A stretch of 38,319 nt of DNA, taken from IMG/VR virus record IMGVR_UViG_3300030110_005318, positions 1-38,319 of that record; one strand, 5' to 3'. The notes under the pieces were generated by a model that was not told the origin of the DNA, ran no database searches, and saw only the letters and a list, made by a program, of their open reading frames with translations. Positions 1 through 2,560 of this stretch are shown piece by piece. Position 1 is the stretch's first letter. Every line of letters begins with the position of its first letter. The translations under genes were made by a program, and so were the position numbers. This DNA comes from a virus.

Positions 1-42
1 CATTGCTTTAACTGCTTGCTCTTGATGTGGTCTTAGTTGCAT
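1..42 (-). CDS. Superfamily II helicase-like protein, N-terminal fragment
   Basis: Only the first 14 codons lie in the window; the gene runs off the left edge. The visible peptide is MQLRPHQEQAVKAM. LRPHQ-x-x-A is the usual opening of many SF2 DNA helicases and translocases (DEAD/DEAH, Type I/III restriction-type and SNF2-like), where it sits just before Walker A. An AGGAAA Shine-Dalgarno sequence lies a few bases before the ATG, and a TGCTATAAT promoter overlaps the end of the preceding gene. It follows the methyltransferase-like gene on the same strand after 22 bases, so it may belong to the same modification cassette. The motor motifs are outside the window, so the exact helicase family is unknown. 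The fibre and tail genes nearby give no hint of function. Confidence 0.55.
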   Translation of the reverse strand, partial: MQLRPHQEQAVKAM

Positions 43-63
43 AGATTTCCTGTTGATATACTT

Positions 64-91
64 ATTATAGCAAACGTGTGAGTGGTGTGTC
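64..91 (-). promoter_or_regulatory. Putative extended -10 promoter for the helicase-like gene
   Basis: On the minus strand TGCTATAAT (TATAAT at 64-69) forms a textbook extended -10 element 21 bases before the helicase ATG. No good -35 box is visible at 86-91. The promoter overlaps the stop codon of the methyltransferase-like gene. The 11-mer TTATTATAGCA (plus strand) is identical to that in the promoter at 1244, and the decamer ACACACCACT lies upstream in both. Read by eye only; activity is inferred. Confidence 0.5.
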
Positions 92-619
92 TATGTCCTG
101 TGACACATTTTTAATTGTCACATCACTATATGACATTGTGATACCACCACCCCAATTACGTTGTGTATGAACTGCTGCAAGTTGAAATCCAAGTGGTGGC
201 CAAGGTTTTGGTGGTGTGTCTACACAATAAAACTCTTTCATTCCAAACCCATACTCTCTCATATCTCTAATTCTTTTCTTTGTGGTGTAATGATTAATTG
301 TAGTTAGATATACTATATTATCTGCAATCTTCATACCATGTTCCAAAAACTTCTGCATCTTTGACCATGGTGGATTTGTGATAATCCAATCAACTTTTCT
401 ATGATATGTAAAGAAGTCTCTACCTTCTCCTATCTCACACCAATCTTTTGTATGTGGATAAACTGCATCAAAATTATCATAAAACACACCTCCACCCCTT
501 GATGGGTCAAGTATCACTCCTGTAGGATTATAATGGTTGATTATATCTTTGGCAAGATACTGTGGTGTCATTACCAAATCTTTCTCTGGTGTGTTCTTAG
601 GTGGGCAAAATGCTCTCAT
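65..619 (-). CDS. DNA N6-adenine methyltransferase-like protein (NPPW type)
   Basis: A 184-residue protein with class I SAM-dependent methyltransferase motifs. These are MTPQYLAKDIINH at 17-29 (motif X-like), LDPSRGGGVFYD at 37-48 (motif I, DPxxGxG form), GRDFF at 66-70, and NPPW at 82-85 (motif IV, the catalytic signature of N6-adenine and some N4-cytosine DNA methyltransferases). It is short for a stand-alone methylase and shows no obvious target-recognition domain after motif IV, so specificity may come from a partner or from the compact C-terminus. The start codon overlaps the stop of the upstream nuclease-like gene as ATGA, which indicates translational coupling. It could protect phage DNA, modify host DNA or serve a phage restriction-modification system. 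The fold is well supported; substrate and role are inferred. Confidence 0.75.
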   Translation of the reverse strand: MRAFCPPKNTPEKDLVMTPQYLAKDIINHYNPTGVILDPSRGGGVFYDNFDAVYPHTKDWCEIGEGRDFFTYHRKVDWIITNPPWSKMQKFLEHGMKIADNIVYLTTINHYTTKKRIRDMREYGFGMKEFYCVDTPPKPWPPLGFQLAAVHTQRNWGGGITMSYSDVTIKNVSQDIDTPLTRLL

Positions 620-1221
620 TTATTGAATGTTCTGGTCTTTGATGCTACTGTAAGTTTAATAGTCTTTGCTTCATATTCTACACCAGAATCTACAAGTTTG
701 TCAATATTGAATGAACATTGCACTCTACGTTGTTTCTTACTGTCAACTTTAGGATGTATAGACATCAATGCGTTACTATCCTCAACAATATTCTTTAATA
801 TTTGTCTCTCTACCTTTGTCTCTTGCTGTCCTTCTAGTCCTACAGGAATACTCTTGATGTATGAGTCAAACTCTCTAAGTTTTTCGTATGTCATCTTACC
901 CCATAGTAATGATTCATGCTCTGGTTTGATGTGGAATGTATATTCTGTGTGGAATACCTTGTTGTCTCCTACCTGTTTCCACTGTCCTATAACTATGTCA
1001 TACTCTAACTCTGCACGTCTTCTGAGTATATCTCCACAATCTACCTTTCTACCTTTTGCAGTTTTGATACTGACATCTATATCTGAGAGTAAACCTTTAA
1101 CGATGTCCATAGATGATGTGTAACCATTGGACTTACGTTTATCATATTCCTTTTTACTGAGTCCAGTAATCTCACGAGTCTTGATGTCTTCAAAAAGATT
1201 ACCATGTGCTTGGACTTCCAT
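616..1221 (-). CDS. Putative PD-(D/E)XK restriction-endonuclease-like protein
   Basis: A 201-residue soluble protein of uncertain family. HGNLFED (6-12) resembles the first helix of PD-(D/E)XK nucleases, where a conserved Glu (E11) sits in a GxxFE context. MDIVKG (D39) followed by DVSIKTAK (K53) and VDCGDILRR (60-68) resembles the active-site strand pair and following helix seen in some phage and Type II restriction enzymes. ELEYDIVIGQWKQ (71-83) looks like the next core strand. The acidic residue two before K53 is replaced by Ser, so an active centre is not certain. It has its own TGCTATAAT promoter and overlaps the methyltransferase-like gene by ATGA, a typical restriction-modification arrangement. 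Start chosen at the ATG 22 bases downstream of the -10 box. A hypothetical protein with another DNA-related role remains possible. Confidence 0.5.
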   Translation of the reverse strand: MEVQAHGNLFEDIKTREITGLSKKEYDKRKSNGYTSSMDIVKGLLSDIDVSIKTAKGRKVDCGDILRRRAELEYDIVIGQWKQVGDNKVFHTEYTFHIKPEHESLLWGKMTYEKLREFDSYIKSIPVGLEGQQETKVERQILKNIVEDSNALMSIHPKVDSKKQRRVQCSFNIDKLVDSGVEYEAKTIKLTVASKTRTFNK

Positions 1222-1243
1222 ATTCTTTGTTGTATATACTATT

Positions 1244-1271
1244 ATTATAGCACTTTATGTTAAATATTCAA
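1244..1271 (-). promoter_or_regulatory. Putative sigma70-type promoter of the nuclease/methylase cassette
   Basis: On the minus strand TTGAAT (1266-1271) and TATAAT (1244-1249) are separated by 16 bases, and the -10 is extended (TGCTATAAT). It lies 22 bases upstream of the ATG at 1221. AAAGTGCTATAA is also shared with the late-type promoter of gp26 (35971-35982), so phage-stage timing is ambiguous. Confidence 0.6.
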
Positions 1272-1369: not shown

Positions 1370-2062
1370 TCAATATTTTTTCCAATACTTATCTGATATA
1401 TACCCAACAGAATAACCAAACTCATTGTCCTTCAGTATTGTAGTTACATCACCCACTATAGCAAGTCTCTCACCTGTGAAACTACAACCTGTGAATCGTG
1501 TGCTGTGGCACAAATTACTCGGAAACAATGCGATAGAACCCTCTGGTGGATGAACAAAGAAAGTTTGTGCATTAAGTTCATTATATTTGTTTACTATTGT
1601 TCTCTCTTCATTATCGTCTTCAACATTCATTGCACCAAATAATATATTTTTACTATAATTATTTTCAAATTCAAGACAATGTGCATTATCAGGCATATTT
1701 AAATAATATGCAAATGACACATGACTTGTTGAATGTATATGCCATCTTATCTGGTCTTCAGGTTTTCTTGCTCTTGATAACCAAGATTTTGTAATTGCAT
1801 AATCAAATATATCTCGATATTGTAAAACATCACATACATAAGTTTTTACATGAGATACCACCTCTTTGAATAAATCATCCAGACTATCCTCTAGATGAAT
1901 GAGTGGTTTAACAATATTCTCACTTACAGTATTATCAATACTACTCTCGTCATAATCAAATTTTGGATATAACTTATAAAAGTCATTCTTATATTTCTCG
2001 TGGTTATTCATCTGACCCACATATATTGTGGTGGGAAATATATTAAATATTTCAAATTTCAT
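1370..2062 (-). CDS. Putative 2OG-Fe(II) oxygenase (TIGR02466/PF13759-like)
   Basis: A 230-residue protein whose layout fits the phage/bacterial putative 2OG-Fe(II) oxygenase family. It has FPTTIY near the N-terminus (9-14), a central RWHIHSTSHVSFAYYLN (106-122) that matches the family W-x-H-x-H...SxxYYL segment, and EGSIALFPSNLCHST (174-188) matching G-x-L-x-LFPS-x-L-x-H, followed by GERLAI with R199. H108, H110 and H186 are the likely iron ligands and R199 the likely 2-oxoglutarate partner. The family forms a double-stranded beta-helix that couples oxidation of a substrate to 2OG decarboxylation. The substrate is unknown; protein, nucleotide or sugar hydroxylation are all possible. It is the last gene of the fibre-end operon, six bases after the next oxygenase-like gene and just before a terminator-like hairpin. 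Confidence 0.7.
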   Translation of the reverse strand: MKFEIFNIFPTTIYVGQMNNHEKYKNDFYKLYPKFDYDESSIDNTVSENIVKPLIHLEDSLDDLFKEVVSHVKTYVCDVLQYRDIFDYAITKSWLSRARKPEDQIRWHIHSTSHVSFAYYLNMPDNAHCLEFENNYSKNILFGAMNVEDDNEERTIVNKYNELNAQTFFVHPPEGSIALFPSNLCHSTRFTGCSFTGERLAIVGDVTTILKDNEFGYSVGYISDKYWKKY

Positions 2063-2068
2063 AATGAT

Positions 2069-2560
2069 TTACAATTTAACCTCTGCATCACGATTTACAT
2101 CAACAAATAATATTTCTAGTGGTTTGTCAGAATAATTATATGCCTGATGTGTATAGTTCATAACATCACAAATCTGTGGTTTTCCCTCCCTCCACTTAAC
2201 AACTCCATCTTTTATGTTTATCCAATCCATATAACATTTATCACTATCAGGAACAGTAAGTGGTATTTGAATTCTTTTGTATGGGTATCGTAGAATATTA
2301 GGATCTTTGTGTGGTTTTAGTATGGTATTGGGGTAAAAAATAGTATAGTTTGAGAATAATATATCTTCGTTTTGATAGATTTCACGCACCTCATCAGTCA
2401 TTAATTTATCTCGTATTATTGTCGTTTTCTTTACTGATTTAATCCAATAATAATCTATATCTTTATTTGAATAACCATCTATCGTAGGAGCTTTTTTAAC
2501 TGGAAACTCAACTTCTTTTGCCCAATTATATAATGTTTCTAGATCATTCTTTGTTATCAT
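2069..2560 (-). CDS. Aspartyl/asparaginyl hydroxylase-like 2OG-Fe(II) oxygenase
   Basis: A 163-residue single-domain protein. LKPHKDPN (81-88) supplies an H-x-D metal motif (H84, D86), KRIQIPL (95-101) matches the R-x-x-x-PL strand of aspartyl/asparaginyl beta-hydroxylase-like proteins, and DVMNYTHQAYNYSDKP (132-147) supplies the distal His (H138) and the H-x-x-x-N-x-S pattern of that family. The C-terminal strand ILFVDV (150-155) corresponds to the usual RxxLxxDV. The Arg of that strand is not visible, so 2OG binding may rely on R96 or K147. Its ATG overlaps the stop of the upstream gene by one base (TAATG), so it is co-translated with the two unknown genes upstream. Substrate unknown; the position at the end of the fibre operon makes modification of a virion protein conceivable, but that is inference. 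Confidence 0.65.
   Translation of the reverse strand: MITKNDLETLYNWAKEVEFPVKKAPTIDGYSNKDIDYYWIKSVKKTTIIRDKLMTDEVREIYQNEDILFSNYTIFYPNTILKPHKDPNILRYPYKRIQIPLTVPDSDKCYMDWINIKDGVVKWREGKPQICDVMNYTHQAYNYSDKPLEILFVDVNRDAEVKL

What the first reader, a model, noticed from the sequence alone, without database searches (positions are those of the whole stretch)
1..1221. Compact nuclease-like / methyltransferase / helicase cassette beside the fibre genes
Three co-directional genes with coupled ATGA junctions: a PD-(D/E)XK-like protein, an NPPW methyltransferase-like protein with no visible recognition domain, and an SF2 helicase starting LRPHQ. This is the composition of a restriction-modification or anti-host DNA system, but with an unusually small methylase and its own promoters. 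It might degrade host DNA while protecting phage DNA, or act against other phages.
Basis: partly seen in the sequence, partly recalled or inferred. Interest (0 to 1): 0.65.

Follow-up and report, generated by a model that had tools for sequence, protein, structure and literature searches.

The report
Cyanophage restriction–modification pair probably targeting GTAC
A marine cyanobacterial virus carries a DNA-cutting enzyme and a DNA-marking enzyme as a linked pair; related viruses that keep the cutter but have lost the marker contain not one GTAC in their whole genomes, which points to GTAC as the site cut and to a viral weapon against unmarked DNA.

Summary
The 201-residue gene (616-1221, minus strand; PHROG 6892, no functional name in the records seen) is very probably a type II restriction endonuclease. 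AlphaFold gives a confident model (pLDDT 93) whose structural matches are mostly PD-(D/E)XK restriction enzymes. 48 of 49 relatives match PADLOC's type II restriction enzyme model PDLC03460. E11, D39, S51, K53 and D64 are invariant. It overlaps the small NPPW methyltransferase gene by exactly ATGA; this pair is conserved in 54 of 70 distinct relatives, 48 with the same 4-base overlap. Both genes are under strong purifying selection.

The decisive finding is a site taboo. Complete genomes with the nuclease but without this methyltransferase (S-SM1, Syn1, S-RIM44) contain zero GTAC where about 490-610 are expected. Genomes with both genes, or without the nuclease, contain GTAC. In 137 kb of aligned DNA, S-SM1 has 0 and S-SSM5 (both genes) has 247; most other palindromic tetramers are about equal. 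ACG-2014f is an exception (nuclease, no such methyltransferase, 480 GTAC).

The helicase is not part of the module: it occurs in 418 cyanophage records, against 28 with the nuclease, and it is not UvsW. The best reading is a virus-encoded GTAC restriction-modification system, like chlorovirus CviQI, that cuts host or rival DNA. The biochemistry is untested.

The parts
616..1221 (-). 201-aa nuclease (N201; PHROG 6892; cyanophage T4-like GC 495), predicted type II restriction endonuclease, predicted target GTAC
   Evidence: GTAC taboo
1189..1191 (-). codon of invariant E11, helix 1, possible metal-binding glutamate
   Evidence: invariant in 49 relatives; helix 5-19 in model; role inferred
1105..1107 (-). 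codon of invariant D39, proposed catalytic aspartate
   Evidence: role inferred
1063..1071 (-). codons S51-I52-K53: S51 and K53 invariant (I52 in over 90%), proposed SxK form of (D/E)xK, on strand 50-56
   Evidence: role inferred
1030..1032 (-). codon of invariant D64, 11 residues after K53; possible displaced catalytic acid (as in Cfr10I/NgoMIV, recalled from general knowledge)
   Evidence: role inferred
65..619 (-). 184-aa N6-adenine DNA methyltransferase core (M467; PHROG 799; T4-like GC 467), proposed cognate GTAC methyltransferase
365..376 (-). NPPW motif (residues 82-85) of the methyltransferase
   Evidence: invariant in 26 relatives
616..619 (-). 4-base ATGA overlap coupling nuclease stop and methyltransferase start
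   Evidence: same overlap in 48 of 70 distinct relatives
1243..1251 (-). promoter-like GCTATAATA upstream of the nuclease
63..71 (-). promoter-like GCTATAATA upstream of the helicase, separate from the pair
1..42 (-). first 14 codons of an SF2 (ResIII/DEAH) helicase; neighbour, not judged part of the module

Best explanation
The pair is a virus-encoded type II restriction-modification system. N201 is a PD-(D/E)XK endonuclease that cuts unmethylated GTAC. M467 is its partner adenine methyltransferase, making GTm6AC in phage DNA. During infection N201 would cut host (or rival phage) DNA, whose GTAC sites are unmarked, while phage DNA is safe because it is methylated or, in lineages without M467, because every GTAC has been removed by selection. 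Supported by computation: the fold and restriction-enzyme homology, the pairing, and the GTAC taboo tied to nuclease-plus, methyltransferase-minus genomes. Inferred: that N201 itself is the enzyme imposing the taboo, that M467 rather than another phage methyltransferase protects GTAC, and that the biological purpose is attack on host DNA.
For: Fold: pLDDT 93, pTM 0.87; VIA-align rows are dominated by PD-(D/E)XK enzymes: Eco15I N-domain Z 8.6, DpnI, NhoI and SfiI 7.7, PvuII 6.5, MutH 6.3, MvaI 6.2, BglI 6.1, then EcoRV and HincII. Sequence: PADLOC REase_II PDLC03460 matches 48 of 49 relatives, best 4.5e-18, and 0 of 14 control genomes. Catalytic-type residues invariant. Pairing: 54 of 70 distinct sequences, 48 with identical overlap; every cyanophage record with close M467 also has N201. 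Taboo: GTAC 0 (491, 574 and 609 expected) in S-SM1, Syn1, S-RIM44 (N201+, M467-), against O/E 0.07-0.50 in six N201+ M467+ genomes and 0.28-0.72 in ten N201- genomes; of all 256 tetramers only GTAC behaves so. Aligned DNA: S-SM1 0 against S-SSM5 247 in 137,432 bp; P-HM1 (both genes) 156 against P-HM2 (no nuclease) 393 in 155,924 bp. Two more N201 lineages with no M467 in the contig held have zero GTAC: G002 0/204, G003 0/41; these are fragments. The M467-less lineages are scattered on the N201 tree. Precedent: chlorovirus NY-2A M.CviQI makes GTm6AC (PMC4357717), and chlorovirus restriction enzymes are packaged and thought to degrade host DNA (PMC7019647).
Against: ACG-2014f isolates C16 and C24 carry N201 with no M467-type methyltransferase, and C16 has 480 GTAC sites (O/E 0.54); they may be protected by another methyltransferase (all six isolates searched, with and without N201, have two D12 enzymes) or their N201 may differ in specificity. 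The zero-GTAC complete genomes lack the N6_N4 methyltransferase DAM38 as well as M467, so the identity of the protector is partly confounded; the 159-kb contig G014 has M467, no DAM38 match and 50 GTAC, which favours M467, but it and S-WAM2 each have two D12 enzymes. Fragment L005 has N201 without adjacent M467 and 9 GTAC; G008 (L006) has 1. Only two complete-genome lineages show the taboo. Foldseek in PDB gave no significant match. No activity has been measured.
Confidence: 0.75

Rival explanations
1. The GTAC taboo comes from host restriction enzymes, M467 is an anti-restriction methyltransferase, and N201 does something else (for example resolves junctions).
For: Site avoidance against host restriction is described as widespread in phages (title of Rusinov 2018, PMC6286503). 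CCGG is absent from 17 of 20 cyanophage genome samples whatever their N201 status, so other forces do impose taboos here. Phage-encoded adenine methyltransferases are common (general knowledge).
Against: N201-free cyanophages, also without M467, keep GTAC (O/E 0.28-0.72); total absence tracks N201-plus, M467-minus genomes isolated on different hosts. N201 is homologous to type II restriction enzymes, and the pair is coupled.
Confidence: 0.12
2. The nuclease cuts GTAC but its protector is another phage methyltransferase (DAM38 or a second D12 enzyme), with M467 serving another site.
For: The zero-GTAC complete genomes lack DAM38 as well as M467; ACG-2014f tolerates GTAC with N201 and no M467 but two D12 enzymes; S-WAM2 and G014, M467-positive and DAM38-negative, have low GTAC and two D12 enzymes.
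Against: M467, not DAM38, is the gene coupled to N201. DAM38 cannot be the sole protector, since S-WAM2 (43 GTAC) and G014 (50 GTAC) have no DAM38 match.
Confidence: 0.2
3. The pair is an anti-rival weapon (superinfection exclusion), not a host-DNA degrader.
For: Marseillevirus R-M enzymes could degrade DNA of other marseilleviruses while host DNA is not degraded in infection (PMC7253447). The nuclease is patchily distributed: 28 records, against 418 with the common helicase, and only two ACG-2014f isolates.
Against: For chloroviruses, host degradation is the favoured role and the enzymes were not responsible for mutual exclusion (PMC7019647). Not testable here.
Confidence: 0.35
4. A three-part nuclease-methyltransferase-helicase defence-like system, as first proposed.
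For: Helicase directly follows the pair in several loci (L002, L007, L009, L011, L024, L039-L042), and in the window it shares a promoter-like motif with the nuclease.
Against: Helicase in 418 records against 28 with N201; absent from P-HM1 and MED4-213, which have both N201 and M467; often separated from the pair or on its other side.
Confidence: 0.05

Closest known systems
Chlorovirus CviQI restriction-modification (virus NY-2A, GTAC)
   Same: Virus-encoded nuclease and m6A methyltransferase; the inferred target GTAC is the CviQI site (M.CviQI makes GTm6AC, PMC4357717). The only significant BFVD structural match is A7RBT9 (E 4e-16, TM 0.81, 298 aa, 24% identity), from its accession probably chlorovirus AR158 (recalled, not checked).
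   Different: Found in tailed phages of marine cyanobacteria; nuclease short (201 aa); methyltransferase lacks a recognition domain; some lineages lack the methyltransferase and have purged the site. The sequence of R.CviQI itself was not available to compare.
PADLOC REase_II model PDLC03460 (type II restriction enzyme)
   Same: Sequence-level match in 48 of 49 relatives
   Different: Match covers residues 49-182 against profile 129-266 of 298; about 100 N-terminal profile positions are not represented. Which characterised enzymes the model comes from is not known here.
MvaI/BcnI restriction family (PF15515)
   Same: In L097 such an enzyme directly follows M467, which lacks N201 upstream there
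   Different: Different sequence family; N201 itself has no Pfam match
M.TaqI catalytic domain (N6-adenine DNA methyltransferase)
   Same: Fold and NPPW-type motif; Z 14.8 over 148 residues
   Different: M467 is 166-184 aa with no target-recognition domain; an RNA methyltransferase (PH1948, Z 16.2) ranks above it, so the fold alone does not prove a DNA substrate
UvsW helicase of T4
   Same: Helicase is SF2/ResIII
   Different: Each of the 10 N201 genomes searched has another, longer ResIII helicase elsewhere, taken to be UvsW; this one is the separate GC 36 helicase

Membership tests
PD-(D/E)XK nuclease superfamily | Core fold with mixed sheet flanked by helices | tested here: met
   AlphaFold model pLDDT 93; VIA-align rows dominated by PD-(D/E)XK enzymes, best Z 8.6. 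Foldseek alone was not significant.
PD-(D/E)XK nuclease superfamily | Catalytic Asp and (D/E/S)xK at the expected strands | tested here: met
   D39, S51, K53, E11 invariant in 49 relatives; K53 on strand 50-56. Serine replaces the usual acid; D64 may supply it (inference). No superposition of the residues was made.
Type II restriction endonuclease | Sequence homology to known type II enzymes | tested here: met
   PADLOC PDLC03460, 48 of 49 relatives, best 4.5e-18
Type II restriction endonuclease | Cuts a defined short unmethylated site | not testable with these tools
   Indirect only: GTAC taboo
Type II restriction-modification system | Nuclease gene linked to a methyltransferase gene | tested here: met
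   54 of 70 distinct relatives adjacent, 48 with ATGA overlap; P-HM1 and MED4-213 have both but about 9 kb apart; 15 not adjacent
Type II restriction-modification system | Methyltransferase protects the same site as the nuclease cuts | tested here: inconclusive
   GTAC is tolerated in genomes with M467 and absent in three of four complete genomes without it; ACG-2014f is an exception and DAM38/D12 enzymes are partly confounded
N6-adenine DNA methyltransferase (gamma-like order) | Motif I DPxxGxG before motif IV NPPW, class I fold | tested here: met
   DNA rather than RNA substrate not tested
N6-adenine DNA methyltransferase (gamma-like order) | Target-recognition domain | tested here: not met
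   166-184 aa, alignment to M.TaqI ends at its catalytic domain
Chlorovirus CviQI system | GTAC specificity, nuclease packaged in virion | not testable with these tools
   Specificity inferred only; no proteomics available
UvsW (helicase) | Being the genome's UvsW orthologue | tested here: not met
   Second, longer ResIII helicase at a separate place in each of 10 genomes
Three-gene nuclease-methyltransferase-helicase system | Helicase obligately linked to the pair | tested here: not met

The most novel reading that the evidence does not exclude
Marine cyanophages carry a family of 4-base-specific restriction nucleases used against host or rival DNA, in two interchangeable states of self-protection: a partner methyltransferase, or complete removal of the target from the phage genome. 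GTAC (N201) is the first case, and the unexplained CCGG, GCGC and CTAG absences in cyanophage genomes may mark further phage nucleases.
Probability: 0.35. Interest if true: 0.85.

Novelty: new variant of a known kind. Interest (0 to 1): 0.72.

Why it matters
It gives a function and an exact predicted target to a protein family annotated as unknown in marine phages, and shows that the target of a phage nuclease can be read from what the genome never contains. It would be a lytic tailed-phage counterpart of chlorovirus restriction-modification, and it makes the question of how cyanophages attack host DNA, or exclude rivals, directly testable with one purified protein. It also suggests self-protection switching between methylation and genome-wide site loss, a clean case for the evolution of selfish restriction genes.

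Tried and rejected
Pfam and NCBIfam: no family for the 201-aa protein. PDB by sequence profile: none. Bacterial and archaeal genome contigs with the N201 profile: none; plasmids: none. Foldseek PDB top rows (CheA kinase, azurin) have low probability and high rmsd and were dismissed. Published M.CviQI primer sequence in IMG/VR: absent, so the chlorovirus enzyme could not be compared. Gene-content search for a CCGG nuclease (present in CCGG-free genomes, absent in ACG-2014f and S-SM2): no convincing candidate. Helicase as a third component: rejected. UvsW identity: rejected. CCGG as the N201 target: rejected, since it is missing in N201-free genomes too.

Full report
WHAT IS THERE. The window is bases 1-38319 of a 55,570-base virus record, a T4-like marine myovirus segment with baseplate and fibre genes. 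On the minus strand at its left end lie a 201-aa ORF (N201, 616-1221), a 184-aa ORF (M467, 65-619) and the first 14 codons of a helicase (1-42). GCTATAATA occurs only twice in the window, just upstream of N201 and of the helicase.

IDENTITY OF THE PARTS. N201 is PHROG 6892, unknown function (E 5e-87), T4-like gene cluster 495, in 28 cyanophage records, none with a functional name for it. It has no Pfam or NCBIfam match. M467 is PHROG 799 DNA methyltransferase. The helicase, read in relatives, is a 397-aa ResIII/DEAD protein.

N201 IS A RESTRICTION-TYPE NUCLEASE. An alignment of 49 viral relatives gave an AlphaFold model with pLDDT 93 and pTM 0.87. Its VIA-align rows are dominated by PD-(D/E)XK enzymes: Eco15I N-domain Z 8.6 (rmsd 2.8, 108 aligned), DpnI, NhoI and SfiI 7.7, PvuII 6.5, MutH 6.3, MvaI 6.2, BglI 6.1, then EcoRV, HincII, Sau3AI and Hjc. 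Each Z is middling on its own; the consistency is the argument. Foldseek in PDB was not significant. Independently, PADLOC's REase_II model PDLC03460 matches the window protein at 4.5e-11 and 48 of 49 relatives, best 4.5e-18, and no control genome. E11, D39, S51, K53 and D64 are invariant; S51 replaces the usual acid, and D64 may act in its place as in the Cfr10I/NgoMIV arrangement (general knowledge; not tested). The only strong viral structural relative is A7RBT9, which I believe from its accession to be a chlorovirus AR158 protein; this is recalled, not verified.

M467 IS A MINIMAL ADENINE METHYLTRANSFERASE. Motif I precedes NPPW; NPPW and the DPxRGxG core are invariant in 26 relatives. The model is moderate (pLDDT 72) and matches class I adenine methyltransferases, among DNA enzymes best M.TaqI (Z 14.8), but an RNA enzyme ranks first. 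There is no recognition domain; how it would find GTAC is open.

THE PAIR IS CONSERVED, THE HELICASE IS NOT PART OF IT. Of 70 distinct N201 sequences 54 have M467 adjacent, 48 with exactly the ATGA overlap, 15 do not and one is cut by a contig end. In P-HM1 and MED4-213 both genes are present but about 9 kb apart. All cyanophage records with close M467 also have N201. dN/dS is 0.05-0.23 for N201 and 0.05-0.09 for M467. The helicase occurs in 418 cyanophage records, is missing from P-HM1 and MED4-213, and is not UvsW, which is a separate gene in each of 10 genomes.

THE TARGET: A GTAC TABOO. Observed and expected (Markov) counts of all tetramers were compared in 20 cyanomyovirus genomes or 60-kb samples (first seen). 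GTAC is completely absent in S-SM1 (491 expected), Syn1 (574) and S-RIM44 (609): N201 present, M467 absent. In six genomes with both genes O/E is 0.07-0.50; in ten without N201 it is 0.28-0.72. One-base neighbours of GTAC are not depleted in S-SM1 and Syn1. In 137,432 aligned bp S-SM1 has 0 GTAC and S-SSM5 (both genes) 247, while most other palindromes are near parity; P-HM1 (both) has 156 against 393 in P-HM2 (no N201) over 155,924 bp; contig G002 (N201; M467 not in the 45.8 kb held) has 0 against 121 in P-HM2. Among N201 contigs with no M467 in the part held, the Vellamovirus-type contigs, G002 (0 of 204) and G003 (0 of 41) lack GTAC; G004, S-SM1-type, has six, all in its first 2.5 kb. These are fragments, so absence of M467 from the genome is not shown. 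On the N201 tree the M467-less lineages are scattered, which suggests repeated loss or gain (quick tree with some long branches). Counting independent complete-genome lineages with zero GTAC gives two (S-SM1; Syn1 with S-RIM44).

EXCEPTIONS AND CONFOUNDERS. ACG-2014f isolates C16 and C24 have N201 as a single inserted gene where the relatives examined have none; they have no PHROG 799 match, yet C16 has 480 GTAC. All six isolates searched have two D12 methyltransferases, one of which might protect GTAC. The zero-GTAC complete genomes also lack DAM38. S-WAM2 and the 159-kb contig G014 have M467, no DAM38 match, and 43 and 50 GTAC; both have two D12 enzymes. So M467 is the likeliest protector, chiefly because it is coupled to N201, but not proven. 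Fragment L005 (9 GTAC) and G008/L006 (1 GTAC) have N201 without adjacent M467; their genomes are incomplete.

HOW IT PROBABLY WORKS. N201 cuts unmethylated GTAC; M467 marks the phage's own sites; phages that lose M467 survive only after purging GTAC, or purge first and then lose it. The victim is host DNA or rival phage DNA. Precedents: chlorovirus restriction enzymes are packaged in virions and thought to start host DNA degradation within minutes (PMC7019647); marseillevirus enzymes instead appear aimed at rivals (PMC7253447); NY-2A M.CviQI makes GTm6AC (PMC4357717). No paper found in the held library describes this for cyanophages; absence there is weak evidence.

NOVELTY. The parts belong to known kinds (type II restriction enzyme, adenine methyltransferase). 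New here, as far as could be checked, are the assignment for this family, the predicted GTAC target, and the two alternative self-protection states. I rate it a new variant of a known kind.

Noticed in passing
20 cyanomyovirus genomes/samples (e.g. L156-L234, L249-L275): CCGG is absent in 17 of 20 samples regardless of N201, but present in ACG-2014f and S-SM2; near-complete Syn9 has one CCGG in 160 kb. Cause unknown; no nuclease candidate from gene content.
   Followed up: partly
S-SM2, NC_015279 (L273-L275, L314-L320): CTAG is absent from the whole 190,789-base genome (0; 95 expected in the 60 kb sampled) while other cyanophages have hundreds; it may encode a CTAG-specific nuclease.
   Followed up: no
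P-HM1, P-HM2, MED4-213, P-SSM2, P-SSM4 samples: GCGC is absent in these Prochlorococcus phage genomes or samples.
   Followed up: no
L097:3818-4495 (and AG-345-L05, MH319755 8207-8884): A MvaI/BcnI-family restriction enzyme (PF15515, E 1e-37) follows M467 by ATGA-type overlap with no N201 upstream; a 51% relative lies beside the helicase in AG-345-L05.
   Followed up: partly
L321 (Klebsiella phage vB_KleM_KB2, 16566-22009): Helicase, N6_N4 methyltransferase, a 157-aa 'nuclease' and an M467 homologue (37%) lie in a coupled row, a similar gene set in a distant phage.
   Followed up: partly
L017 and L239 against L235-L238 (ACG-2014f): N201 is present in only two ACG-2014f isolates, as a clean single-gene insertion.
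   Followed up: partly
L291 (contig G004) 1-2528: All six GTAC of this 25.7-kb contig lie in its first 2.5 kb; possible foreign or misjoined end.
   Followed up: no
window 1370-2560: Two neighbouring oxygenase-type genes (2OG-Fe(II) oxygenase PF13759; Asp/Arg hydroxylase PF05118) beside the pair; 2OG oxygenases recur near N201 in relatives.
   Followed up: no
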